This document shows positions 55,135 to 58,472 of a stretch of 64,000 nucleotides of DNA, one piece after another. The notes beneath the pieces were generated by a model. The model was given only the letters and a program-made list of their open reading frames with translations, did not search any database and was not told the origin of the DNA. Numbering within the stretch: position 1 is the first letter of the stretch; each line of letters begins with the position of its first letter. Source of the stretch: Bacteroidota bacterium (GTDB taxonomy: Bacteria; Bacteroidota; Rhodothermia; Rhodothermales; Bin80); NCBI GenBank assembly GCA_026708685.1, contig JAPOUL010000071.1:1-64000 (forward strand), in the 5' to 3' direction. Both the position numbers and the translations under genes were made by a program.

Positions 55135-55142
55135 AAAATTTG
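55135..55142. other. left 8-bp target-site duplication of the transposon
   Basis: AAAATTTG immediately precedes the left terminal inverted repeat; the same 8 bases follow the right end at 58465-58472. Eight bases is the duplication length known for the IS1595 family. Confidence 0.9.
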
Positions 55143-55170
55143 GGGAATTATATACTTAATTGTACTAAAA
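55143..55170 (+). repeat. left terminal inverted repeat (28 bp)
   Basis: Exact reverse complement of 58437-58464. It contains TAATTGTACTA, related to the palindromic boxes just upstream of the transposase gene. Confidence 0.93.
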
Positions 55171-55196
55171 TAATTGGATTTTCGGAACTTTCTTAG

Positions 55197-55239
55197 TACA
55201 ATTATTGTATAAGATGGTACATTAAACAATTATTGTACC
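55197..55239 (+). promoter_or_regulatory. palindromic operator-like boxes before the transposase gene
   Basis: The 11-bp palindrome ACAATTATTGT occurs twice, at 55198-55208 and 55226-55236, 28 bp apart. The second lies within a wider inverted repeat (GGTACA at 55216 and TGTACC ending 55239) that abuts the ATG at 55240. The first overlaps TTGTATAAG, a possible -10 region. This layout suggests autoregulation of the transposase-RM operon. Confidence 0.5.
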
Positions 55240-56172
55240 ATGAGTCATTATCTTAGTATTCACGAGTTCTACCAACGGTTCCCAGATGAGAACGCTGCAC
55301 GTGATTACATTGCCCAGCAACGCTGGGGTAACAAGCCGTGCTGTCCAAGATGTGGCAGTGAGAAAGTGTGGAAGATCAGTGGGGGCATGCACTACAAATG
55401 TGGCGATTGTCCAAAAGGGAAAGAGCGGTTTTCTGTTCGCACTGGAACCATTATGGAGCACTCACGGGTTCCATTACAGAAATGGTTGTTAGCCATTAAC
55501 TTGATGATTAGTGCTCGCAAGGGCTTTTCAAGCATTCAGTTTGCCAAGCATCTGGGAGTAACCCAGAAGACTGCGTGGCACATGGAGCATCGGATTCGCA
55601 AGGCTTGTGAATCCAATGAGGAACTTCCTTTGAAGGGAGATATTGAAATCGATGAAACCTATATCGGCGGGAAAGAATCCAACAAACACGCATCTAAGAA
55701 ACTCAATCAAGGACGTGGAGCCGTTGGCAAAGCAGCTGTGGTTGGATTGCAACAGAGGCAGGGCAAAGTGGTTGCTATGCACGTAGAAAAGGCAAATAGA
55801 GCTACCATTTATCCAATCATTGAGAAGCATGTTGAAAAAGGATCATCTGTTTTCACCGACGATCACAAAATCTATGACAGTTTGCATGGGGCATTTGATC
55901 ATGAATCTGTCAAGCATTCAGCTGGTGAATATGTAAAGGGCAAAGCCTCCACCAATAGCATAGAAAGTTTCTGGGCGTTGATCAAGCGTGGTTACTATGG
56001 AACGCATCATTGGTGGAGTTACAAACATCTTCACCGTTACGTTGCTGAATACGTTTACCGTCATAATACTCGTCATCTCAGTGGTATCCATGCTATTGGA
56101 GCATTGATCAGCAACAGTGAAGGTAAATCCTTATCTTATACAGAACTCATCCATCCTACACATGATTCGTAA
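55240..56172 (+). CDS. IS1595 family transposase (ISXO2-like)
   Basis: The product has 310 residues. An N-terminal zinc ribbon (CCPRCGSEKVW and YKCGDC, residues ~28-55) is followed by a helix-turn-helix (SSIQFAKHLGVTQKTAWHMEHRIR). The DDE core shows IEIDETYIGGKE, SVFTDDHKIYD and ASTNSIESFWALIKRGYYGTHHW. These are the ISXO2/IS1595 signatures, and length is normal. The stop lies 11 bp inside the methyltransferase frame, so transposase and modification enzyme are probably translationally coupled. Confidence 0.95.
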   Translation: MSHYLSIHEFYQRFPDENAARDYIAQQRWGNKPCCPRCGSEKVWKISGGMHYKCGDCPKGKERFSVRTGTIMEHSRVPLQKWLLAINLMISARKGFSSIQFAKHLGVTQKTAWHMEHRIRKACESNEELPLKGDIEIDETYIGGKESNKHASKKLNQGRGAVGKAAVVGLQQRQGKVVAMHVEKANRATIYPIIEKHVEKGSSVFTDDHKIYDSLHGAFDHESVKHSAGEYVKGKASTNSIESFWALIKRGYYGTHHWWSYKHLHRYVAEYVYRHNTRHLSGIHAIGALISNSEGKSLSYTELIHPTHDS

Positions 56173-57301
56173 TTCTCCATCCATTCCTAAGTACACAGGC
56201 AAGGAATGGGAAATCAAACCACTTGATGCCCTCTCTTTTGACGATGTGCTTAAGAAAGTGGTGGGTACTGTAACACAAACTCCCACACACCCAGCCACAG
56301 AGATCCCTGCATGTCTGGTTAATTCTATTCAGTGTGGGGACTCTGAATTCGTACTCAAGCAGTTGCCCAACAATTCTGTTGATCTTGTTGTTACATCTCC
56401 ACCCTACTACCAACAACGATCCTACAACAATGGACAAACCATCGGAGATGAGGTGTCCGTAGAAAAATACACGGATTCTCTGATGGATGTTTTCCGAGAG
56501 GTTGTCAGGGTCGTGAAACCATCAGGTAACATTGTCTACAACTTGGGGGATAAATATGTAAATAAGTCCCTACTGCTTGTTCCATTCAGGTTCGCAATCA
56601 AGGCAACCACCCAAGAAAGTGTCATTTTGGTGAACAACATTACATGGGCAAAGAGCAACCCTACTCCCCGCCAGTTTGACCGCAGACTCGTTAGTAGTAC
56701 AGAGCCGTTCTTTCATTTTGCGAAGGGGAGCGATTACTACTATGATCGTGATGTGTTTTTCGAAAACAAGGACAGGGAACGGCTCCACAAGGCATCCCCT
56801 AAAATAGGTCAGGGATACAGACAGAAGATTGACGGATCAGACCTTTCCGCCGAAGAAAAGAGGGATGCCCACCAGAGCCTCGATAAAGTCATCAAGGAGG
56901 CACAGTCTGGGCAAATACAGAGTTTTCGCATGAAGATACGGGGGGTTCATGCCGAAGCGTTCGGAGGTGAGCAGGGTGGGCGGAACTCACAGATACGGGA
57001 CAGGGGATTTACGATTATACGGCTTTATGGACGTGCGATGAAAAAAGATGTGATGCACTGCGCTGTGGAATCTGTGCCCAACATAAGACACACGGCCATG
57101 TACCCCGAAACCATAATTCGGGAGTTGGTCAAAATGTTAGCACCTGACAATGGGATTGTGCTGGATCCATATATGGGGAGTGGCACCACCGCTCTTGCGG
57201 CCATGAGGGAGGGGCGGAGATTTGTCGGTATCGATATTGAACCGTCCTACTGCGAACTGGCAAACAACAGAATTTCTAATTACATCAACCGAAATGCTTA
57301 A
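56162..57301 (+). CDS. beta-class DNA methyltransferase (N4-cytosine or N6-adenine)
   Basis: The product has 379 residues from the ATG at 56162; an upstream GTG at 56117 is inside the transposase gene. Catalytic motif TSPPYYQQRSY (residues 78-88) precedes the AdoMet motif DPYMGSGTT (~335-343) and FVGIDIEPSYC: the beta-class order typical of type II modification enzymes. An SPPY motif is more common for N4-cytosine enzymes. The ~220 residues between hold the target-recognition region. It protects host sites from the endonuclease encoded next, whose start overlaps its end by 8 bp. Confidence 0.93.
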   Translation: MIRNSPSIPKYTGKEWEIKPLDALSFDDVLKKVVGTVTQTPTHPATEIPACLVNSIQCGDSEFVLKQLPNNSVDLVVTSPPYYQQRSYNNGQTIGDEVSVEKYTDSLMDVFREVVRVVKPSGNIVYNLGDKYVNKSLLLVPFRFAIKATTQESVILVNNITWAKSNPTPRQFDRRLVSSTEPFFHFAKGSDYYYDRDVFFENKDRERLHKASPKIGQGYRQKIDGSDLSAEEKRDAHQSLDKVIKEAQSGQIQSFRMKIRGVHAEAFGGEQGGRNSQIRDRGFTIIRLYGRAMKKDVMHCAVESVPNIRHTAMYPETIIRELVKMLAPDNGIVLDPYMGSGTTALAAMREGRRFVGIDIEPSYCELANNRISNYINRNA

Positions 57302-58379
57302 AAAACTTTTAGATCGCGCAACCACCATGGATGCAGATGACATAGAAGTTCGGCAAGAACACAAACACCTGCTGGACATCATTGTGGATAACGCATGCAG
57401 TGGGCGACAGAAGGCTGTACTTGCGGTCACCTTAACCCTATTACTCAAGAAGCACATCTCCCCTGAACAAGACATCAGGTATCACATGGATAGGATGGAG
57501 GGGGGATTTTCAGGGAGGGGATTGGATCATAGAGAAGTCACTCCCTTTCTAAAAAAAGAAGACTTTCCATATATGGCTTCGGGTTCAGGATGGTTGACGC
57601 GATCACTTGAACAGGCAGTGCCATACACTCTCGAGTATACGGGTGCTATAAAGCCCCCCGAACTGAAAACGGCTTTCCTCACTTTGGTGAACGATTTACC
57701 CGATACGGATGTGGTGCCGTATATTTTATACGTGCTTCGGAAGTTATTCGATTGGCGTATGGTGAATGCATCCATCACTTTGGCGAAGCCAACAAACCGT
57801 AGTATTATGGAAATCATTCACATGGTTGAAGAACACTGGAACGCACATCAACCAGGAGTTGCCAAAATACCCGTAATTGCTATATGGGCTGCGTACAAGT
57901 GTCTGCTCTCTGAGGTGTGCAGATTCCGAGACTGCTCGTTGGATGAAATCAGGTCACACACATCTGCCGACAAAGACAGGTGGATGGGAGACGTTCAGAT
58001 CATCGGCATTGACGGCAATCCTGTGGAAGCTGTCGAAATCAAGCACAACATCAATCTGAGTGTATCTTTGGTGGCGGGCTTCAAGAATAAGATTGCTGGC
58101 TCTGGACTTAGTCGATTCTATATCCTAAGTACGCGTGAGGATGTCCCTGCGGAAGATCTTGCGGAGATCACCGAGATTTTAATCGAAATACGATCACAGT
58201 ATGGTTGCCAGGTGATCATCAATGGGGTGAGTTCAACATTGAAGTACTATCTGAGGCTCATCAAAAGCCCTGATCAGTTTATCCGCGAATACGCAACAGC
58301 CATTGAGTCGGACAAAGAGATACCATATCCACTCAAGATTAAGTGGAATGAACTAAACTCATACGAGGCGGATGAATGA
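57294..58379 (+). CDS. type II restriction endonuclease, SacI-family-like
   Basis: The product has 361 residues from the ATG at 57294; the frame is open back to 57222 inside the methyltransferase gene. The block GLDHREVTPFLKKEDFPYM with SGWLTRSLEQAVPYTLEYTG (~77-116) recalls the SacI restriction enzyme family. A PD-(D/E)xK-like site is visible at GDVQIIG (Asp233) and EAVEIKH (Glu248, Lys250). If the family is right, the target could be GAGCTC-like, but specificity cannot be read from sequence. Position directly after a methyltransferase supports the role. Confidence 0.75.
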   Translation: MLKKLLDRATTMDADDIEVRQEHKHLLDIIVDNACSGRQKAVLAVTLTLLLKKHISPEQDIRYHMDRMEGGFSGRGLDHREVTPFLKKEDFPYMASGSGWLTRSLEQAVPYTLEYTGAIKPPELKTAFLTLVNDLPDTDVVPYILYVLRKLFDWRMVNASITLAKPTNRSIMEIIHMVEEHWNAHQPGVAKIPVIAIWAAYKCLLSEVCRFRDCSLDEIRSHTSADKDRWMGDVQIIGIDGNPVEAVEIKHNINLSVSLVAGFKNKIAGSGLSRFYILSTREDVPAEDLAEITEILIEIRSQYGCQVIINGVSSTLKYYLRLIKSPDQFIREYATAIESDKEIPYPLKIKWNELNSYEADE

Positions 58380-58436
58380 AATGAGCCATAAGATTCTCAC
58401 GATGAGTGATCCAACATTCCTTCAAAAACCCAACAT

Positions 58437-58464
58437 TTTTAGTACAATTAAGTATATAATTCCC
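58437..58464 (-). repeat. right terminal inverted repeat (28 bp)
   Basis: Exact reverse complement of 55143-55170, 57 bp after the endonuclease stop. Confidence 0.93.
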
Positions 58465-58472
58465 AAAATTTG
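58465..58472. other. right 8-bp target-site duplication
   Basis: AAAATTTG, identical to 55135-55142. Removing the element and one copy would restore an uninterrupted intergenic sequence. Confidence 0.9.

What the first reader, a model, noticed from the sequence alone, without database searches (positions are those of the whole stretch)
55143..58464. A self-mobile restriction-modification transposon: transposase, methyltransferase and endonuclease in one overlapping operon
Seen directly: 28-bp perfect terminal inverted repeats, an exact 8-bp target duplication (AAAATTTG), an intact ISXO2/IS1595-like transposase, a beta-class methyltransferase and a PD-(D/E)xK-like endonuclease, with gene ends overlapping by 11 and 8 bp. 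Family knowledge: type II restriction-modification systems act as addiction modules. Inference: the RM pair stabilises the transposon after insertion, and coupling its translation to transposase may time methylation against restriction in a new host. RM genes are often near mobile elements, but rarely inside a minimal IS with all three frames coupled.
Basis: partly seen in the sequence, partly recalled or inferred. Interest (0 to 1): 0.85.

Follow-up and report, generated by a model that had tools for sequence, protein, structure and literature searches.

The report
Transposon carrying a swappable restriction-modification system
A small bacterial jumping gene carries its own DNA-methylating and predicted DNA-cutting pair. 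It belongs to a widespread group of IS1595-family elements that carry different such pairs on the same carrier, so bacteria may gain and exchange DNA-recognition systems through a simple transposon.

Summary
The exact trio was not found elsewhere, but the arrangement is not a one-off. About 30 IS1595 elements in at least six phyla carry a DNA methyltransferase directly behind tnp, usually followed by a restriction nuclease or nuclease domain; about 20 keep terminal repeats and 8-bp duplications, and a second one lies in this genome. A congener holds the same carrier (88% DNA identity through the left end, tnp and about 65 bp of M) with an unrelated M+R pair; a second such swap occurs in Flavobacteriaceae. 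M begins with a short carrier-derived leader. Related leaders are fused to unrelated cargo or stand alone as small ORFs. Best reading: a modular IS1595 'transporter IS' whose restriction-modification cassette is exchanged between carriers. Mobility is well supported. Restriction activity, post-segregational killing and timing by translational coupling are inferences. ISfinder, REBASE and the founding IS1595 paper could not be consulted.

The parts
55135..55142 (.). left copy of the 8-bp target-site duplication AAAATTTG
55143..55170 (+). left terminal inverted repeat, 28 bp perfect (partial match to 40 bp)
55197..55237 (.). two near-identical palindromic sites (TACAATTATTGTA and ACAATTATTGTA) between TIR and tnp start; operator-like, function inferred
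   Evidence: the 12-mer occurs only twice in the window
55240..56172 (+). IS1595-family transposase, 310 aa, intact zinc ribbon and DDE-type catalytic domain
56162..57301 (+). beta-class N6/N4 DNA methyltransferase M (TSPPY before DPYMGSG), 379 aa; start overlaps the tnp stop by 11 bp
56162..56287 (+). carrier-derived N-terminal leader of M (about 42 codons; IKPLDALSFDDVLKKVV matches the chassis leader motif); first 65 bp shared with the congener element carrying a different M
57294..58379 (+). predicted PD-(D/E)xK restriction endonuclease R, 361 aa; D233...E248-x-K250; start overlaps the M stop by 8 bp
58437..58464 (-). right terminal inverted repeat, 28 bp perfect
58465..58472 (.). right copy of the 8-bp target-site duplication AAAATTTG

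Best explanation
The element is a simple IS1595-family transposon ('transporter IS') that carries one exchangeable restriction-modification cassette. The transposase acts on the 28-bp ends and makes 8-bp duplications (shown by anatomy). The cargo gene next to tnp starts on or near the tnp stop and begins with a short leader that belongs to the carrier (shown by comparison). Behind that point the cassette has been replaced repeatedly, giving carriers of nearly the same sequence with unrelated methyltransferases and nucleases (shown). In this copy the pair is a beta-class, probably N4-cytosine, methyltransferase and a nuclease of an uncharacterised PD-(D/E)xK-like family found beside or fused to methyltransferases in other organisms (predicted). 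The pair most likely persists because it restricts foreign DNA and/or kills cells that lose it, which helps a low-copy transposon stay in a lineage (inferred, not tested). Cassette exchange most likely happens by recombination between co-resident elements through shared tnp/leader DNA and the right end (inferred).
For: Termini, duplication and three intact ORFs. Family assignments. Congener element L056: 88% DNA identity over bp 1-1084, then none until the right TIR, with a different M+R pair and TSD CTTAAAAA. Flavobacteriaceae pair L175/L180: 90% identity over bp 1-1161 and 92% over the last 167 bp, but an N6/N4 M in one and a C5 M with NgoFVII-like R in the other. Second RM element in the same genome (L023, M-HNH fusion, matching ends, TSD ATTTCTAT). 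RM cargo of at least seven make-ups inside IS1595 termini, with R partners recognised as MvaI/BcnI, NgoFVII, GmrSD or PADLOC type II REases. Methyltransferase-like ORFs: 16 of 77 inside elements against 1 of 608 in the flanks, Fisher p=2e-15. Tnp tree of 105 rows: cargo classes need 27 changes where 8 would be the least. R relatives lie next to or fused to methyltransferases in 6 of 7 places, including a C5 M-R fusion on a Staphylococcus epidermidis plasmid. The closest M+R pair, outside any IS1595 carrier, lacks the leader.
Against: No activity is shown for any of the three proteins. R has no hit in any family library or in the PDB, and its single-sequence model is useless (pLDDT 37). The element is single-copy and its empty site could not be shown because the surrounding intergenic DNA is not conserved in congeners. 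Selection for the RM genes is not clear-cut: some elements have a broken tnp with intact RM ORFs (L056, L069, L075), others an intact tnp with broken M (L071, L073, L082).
Confidence: 0.75

Rival explanations
1. Ordinary passenger carriage: an IS1595 element captured an RM operon by chance. The RM genes neither stabilise the element nor are specifically exchanged, and the gene overlaps are just compact packing.
For: IS1595 elements with passenger genes are an established notion (transporter IS). Many relatives carry non-RM cargo (P63C, RhuM, PAPS reductase) or none. Overlaps of 4-11 bp are common in operons. Several RM cargos are decayed.
Against: RM cargo recurs with very different RM types in at least six phyla and is strongly enriched inside versus outside elements. 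Near-identical carriers with different RM pairs argue for repeated exchange.
Confidence: 0.3
2. Addiction-driven transposon with timed expression: translational coupling to Tnp makes M before R in a new host, and loss of the element kills the cell.
For: M precedes R co-directionally in every two-gene RM element seen. Type II RM systems act as selfish addiction modules, and an R-negative mutation cut the recovery of IS-linked integrations of an RM plasmid in E. [quoted passage not shown]
Against: No expression, killing or coupling data. No unbiased baseline for M-R order was made. One-polypeptide M-HNH, M-Mrr and type IIG-like cargos need no such timing.
Confidence: 0.35
3. Domesticated or dead element: a chromosomal RM system that merely sits in an old IS and no longer moves.
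For: Single copy in the genome. The 79%-identical relative L056 has five stops in tnp, and other relatives of the same lineage in the genus are decayed.
Against: In the window tnp, both 28-bp ends and the 8-bp duplication are all perfect, which points to recent activity.
Confidence: 0.15

Closest known systems
IS1595 family / 'transporter IS' (tIS) carrying passenger genes (Siguier, Gagnevin and Chandler 2009, cited in PMC3129680 and PMC7986276)
   Same: Transposase family, GGG-starting inverted repeats, 8-bp duplication, passenger gene inside a minimal IS.
   Different: Here the passengers are complete RM systems of many types, exchanged on the same carrier, with an in-frame carrier leader. 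The 2009 paper and ISfinder could not be read, so an already listed RM passenger cannot be excluded.
RM systems flanked by IS copies / IS-linked movement of RM (PMC3031569 and works cited there: PluTI, Rhizobium VF39SM)
   Same: RM genes moved by insertion sequences, with a suggested benefit of RM for the joint unit.
   Different: Those are composite or cointegrate structures between IS copies. Here the RM is inside one IS, in line with tnp.
Tn7-like transposons with defence cargo (PMC8649781)
   Same: Transposons that carry diverse interchangeable defence genes, RM the most common.
   Different: Tn7-like elements use a multi-protein transposition machinery and carry variable cargo sets. This element has one transposase and room for one or two genes.
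'IS1 - site-specific DNA methyltransferase' syntenic couples (PMC9208149)
   Same: Large-scale statistical association of a related IS family with DNA methyltransferase genes (37.2% of IS1 couples in that analysis).
   Different: Reported as gene neighbourhood only, for IS1; no element boundaries, nuclease partner, cassette swap or leader in the passages read.
Casposons with methyltransferase or restriction genes (PMC4046053)
   Same: Mobile elements with inverted repeats that carry DNA methyltransferases or a putative REase.
   Different: Cas1-based integration and PolB; unrelated machinery.

Membership tests
IS1595 family insertion sequence | DDE transposase of the IS1595/ISXO2 type with zinc ribbon | tested here: met
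   PF12762 6.4e-41, PF12760 2.7e-12, NF033547 198 bits against a cut-off of 75
IS1595 family insertion sequence | terminal inverted repeats starting GGG and an 8-bp target duplication | tested here: met
   28/28 bp and AAAATTTG; same in many relatives
IS1595 family insertion sequence | demonstrated or inferable transposition | tested here: inconclusive
   duplication and intact ends imply it; single copy and no empty site found
Transporter IS (IS with passenger genes) | non-transposition genes between the inverted repeats of a single IS | tested here: met
   M and R lie wholly inside
Type II restriction-modification system | DNA methyltransferase with catalytic motifs | tested here: met
   N6_N4_Mtase 4e-43, TSPPY and DPYMGSG motifs in beta-class order
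Type II restriction-modification system | cognate restriction endonuclease | tested here: inconclusive
   GD-x14-ExK conserved and relatives adjacent or fused to methyltransferases in 6 of 7 places, but no family, PDB or usable fold match
Type II restriction-modification system | M and R act on the same sequence | not testable with these tools
   needs methylome and cleavage data
Addiction module | loss of the gene pair kills or inhibits the cell | not testable with these tools
   inference from the type II RM literature only
Composite transposon | cargo flanked by two IS copies | tested here: not met
   only one tnp and one pair of ends

The most novel reading that the evidence does not exclude
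These IS1595 elements form a class of modular carriers. A small carrier-encoded peptide, translated from the tnp stop codon and either free or fused in frame to the cargo, is a functional part, for example a transposase-binding or regulatory tag. Around it, whole restriction-modification systems of unrelated specificity are exchanged, so one simple transposon lineage repeatedly changes the methylation and restriction type it delivers to hosts.
Probability: 0.35. Interest if true: 0.85.

Novelty: new variant of a known kind. Interest (0 to 1): 0.64.

Why it matters
How RM systems spread and change specificity between distant bacteria is an old question. They are often near mobile elements but rarely seen as the sole cargo of a minimal, self-sufficient IS. 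These elements give natural carrier pairs that differ only in the RM cassette, so the idea that RM helps a mobile element persist can be tested directly. The shared leader on unrelated cargo proteins is an unexplained conserved feature that could reveal a link between transposase and cargo. The nuclease in this window also points to an REase-like family absent from the libraries searched here.

Tried and rejected
Composite transposon or RM merely next to an IS: rejected, as one pair of ends encloses all three genes. Assembly artefact: rejected in practice by the many independent same-layout elements. The same M+R trio in other genomes: not found; the nearest M+R pair (G010, 49%/42%) is not in an IS1595 carrier. 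Structure of R: the single-sequence model was useless (pLDDT 37), so no fold search was run; a six-sequence profile against the PDB gave only a chance beta-propeller hit (E 0.29). Structure of M with eight sequences: the core is confident only in part; residues 26-35 of the leader form a lone low-confidence helix, so nothing is built on it. R in viral contigs: nothing. Empty site: intergenic DNA not conserved. Structured RNAs: no Rfam hit. Promoter and terminator scan at chance level. 'RM outlives tnp' as evidence of selection: rejected as one-sided, since decay goes both ways. Plasmid-borne IS1595 relatives: the five inspected carried no RM cargo.

Full report
OBSERVATION. The element at 55143-58464 is as described. 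Both ends read GGGAATTATATACTTAATTGTACTAAAA inward (28/28), and AAAATTTG flanks both sides. The three ORFs are intact and co-directional: Tnp 55240-56172, M 56162-57301, R 57294-58379, with overlaps of 11 and 8 bp. In the rest of the genome the end sequence occurs only once more, as a 25/28 solo copy, so this is a single-copy insertion.

GENES. Tnp is a clear IS1595-family transposase with the catalytic and zinc-ribbon positions conserved. M is a beta-class amino-methyltransferase (motif IV TSPPY before motif I DPYMGSG). SPPY in a beta-class enzyme suggests N4-cytosine (inference). R matches no family in Pfam, NCBIfam or PADLOC and no PDB chain. Its relatives share G-D-x14-E-x-K, the usual spacing of a PD-(D/E)xK active site. 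They lie beside or fused to DNA methyltransferases in six of seven places, including one polypeptide with a C5 methyltransferase on a Staphylococcus epidermidis plasmid. R is therefore most likely a restriction endonuclease of an uncharacterised family, but this is a prediction.

NOT A ONE-OFF. The same genome holds a second IS1595 element, 41% identical in Tnp, whose next gene is a methyltransferase-HNH fusion starting on the tnp stop codon. Its ends match over the 24 bp compared and it has the TSD ATTTCTAT. Reading about 40 relatives in this order and 80 loci from other genomes gave about 30 elements with a DNA methyltransferase directly behind tnp. About 20 of these have recognisable ends and 8-bp duplications. 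The hosts are Rhodothermota, Chloroflexota, Pseudomonadota, Verrucomicrobiota, Bacteroidota and Binatota.

CARGO TYPES. RM cargos are: N6/N4 M with separate R (R recognised as MvaI/BcnI family in four, PADLOC type II REase in one); C5 M with NgoFVII-like R, with DUF4928 (a PADLOC type II REase) or with unrecognised R; EcoRI-type M with GmrSD-like nuclease; M-HNH fusions; M-Mrr fusions; type IIG-like HSDR_N + N6_Mtase + Methylase_S; and an Eco57I-like M with a weak Tsp45I-like R. In every two-gene RM element seen, M comes first. Within elements that have ends and duplication, 16 of 77 long non-tnp ORFs carry methyltransferase motifs, against 1 of 608 in the flanking DNA of the same loci (Fisher p=2e-15). 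The query alignment was built from RM-bearing elements, so the fraction of all IS1595 elements with RM is not estimated; the inside-versus-flank contrast is not affected by that.

CASSETTE EXCHANGE. The nearest relative, in a congener (L056), shares 88% DNA identity with this element from bp 1 to bp 1084: left end, tnp and about 65 bp of M. After that there is no similarity until the right end. Its M carries DPPYNIG (probably N6-adenine), its R is unrelated and its TSD is CTTAAAAA. A second natural pair, L175 and L180 in Flavobacteriaceae, shares 90% over bp 1-1161 and 92% over the last 167 bp but carries an N6/N4 M with a second ORF in one and a C5 M with NgoFVII-like R in the other. L108/L119 and L134/L137 are further pairs with different cargo. 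On a tree of 105 transposases the cargo classes need 27 changes where 8 would suffice, although cargo is still clustered compared with shuffled labels.

THE LEADER. The first residues of M are not part of the methyltransferase. The nearest M outside an IS1595 carrier aligns only from residue 56. The window leader (IKPLDALSFDDVLKKVV) resembles a motif, E-P-I-D-A-x-F-D-[DE]-V-x-x-[AS]-h-[VL], at the start of unrelated cargo proteins in other elements. A profile built only from leaders of P63C-type cargo finds RhuM-type cargo, an unnamed cargo type and methyltransferase cargo (L105 5e-7, L148 8.5e-5, window 0.0026, L106 0.012) ahead of about 1000 control N-termini (best true control 0.22). Codon positions 1, 2 and 3 in 20 leaders have entropies 0.80, 0.57 and 1.67, so the peptide rather than the DNA is conserved. 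In some elements the leader is a free-standing short ORF on the tnp stop (L113, L121). A second leader type stands alone in L140, L146 and L158, and is fused to a C5 M (L147), an N6/N4 M (L155) and the L138 cargo; a profile from the three free-standing forms ranks exactly those three first. The leader thus looks like a small accessory ORF of the IS to which cargo becomes fused. Its role is unknown. A transposase-related or regulatory function is my guess; a mere scar of recombination is disfavoured by the protein-level conservation.

HOW IT LIKELY WORKS. Shown by anatomy: a complete IS1595 unit with two cargo genes. Shown by comparison: recurrent RM cargo, replacement of RM cassettes on a conserved carrier, and a carrier-derived leader on M. 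Inferred: Tnp moves the whole unit; M and R are a cognate pair; the pair persists through defence and/or killing after loss; exchange proceeds by recombination in shared tnp/leader DNA and the right end. The benefit of RM to IS-linked insertion has an experimental precedent in E. coli (PMC3031569). Translational coupling as a timer is possible but unsupported beyond gene order and overlap. Two palindromic sites just before tnp (55197-55237) could be operators.

COMPARISON AND NOVELTY. The carrier is an IS1595-family element of the 'transporter IS' kind, whose existence is established (PMC3129680, PMC7986276). It is not a composite transposon. Tn7-like transposons also mobilise RM systems (PMC8649781), and a large-scale survey reported an IS1 - DNA methyltransferase association (PMC9208149). 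No paper found in the open library describes RM cassettes in IS1595 elements, their exchange or the leader. The key 2009 paper, ISfinder and REBASE could not be consulted. I therefore call it a new variant of a known kind.

LIMITS. No experiment is available. Most relatives are from metagenome assemblies. The empty site could not be shown. Passenger calls rest on profile hits and motifs. Leader significance was measured against control N-termini from the same loci, not against all proteins.

Noticed in passing
L023 (own genome, contig C10: 3989-6560): Second IS1595 RM transposon in the same genome: Tnp plus methyltransferase-HNH fusion, matching ends, TSD ATTTCTAT.
   Followed up: yes
L102-L119, L122, L125, L127, L136, L141 (Alphaproteobacteria; not every number in the range): A related clade of IS1595 elements carries P63C, RhuM or an unnamed cargo protein, all with the same N-terminal leader EPIDAxFDDVV and an 8-bp overlap with tnp.
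   Followed up: partly
L113, L121, L140, L146, L158: Short ORFs of 42-57 aa on the tnp stop codon that resemble the leaders fused to cargo elsewhere; probably a small accessory gene of these ISs.
   Followed up: partly
L025 3240-5357 (Staphylococcus epidermidis plasmid p1): One protein annotated as cytosine methyltransferase is a fusion of a C5 methyltransferase with a homologue of the window's R, between two IS257 copies.
   Followed up: partly
L139: IS1595 element with a PAPS-reductase-family protein as cargo.
   Followed up: no
L144, L151, L168, L169, L171, L174, L176, L178: One gammaproteobacterial assembly holds many copies of a 1.45-kb IS1595 element with a conserved 100-113 aa ORF behind tnp and different TSDs; clearly active recently.
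   Followed up: no
own genome, contig C15: 2990-3017: Solo end sequence (25/28) of the window's element without tnp, M or R nearby; a relic of a former copy.
   Followed up: yes
window 55197-55237: Two near-identical palindromic sites (ACAATTATTGTA core) just before the tnp start, related to the AATTGTAC part of the terminal repeat; possible autoregulation.
   Followed up: partly
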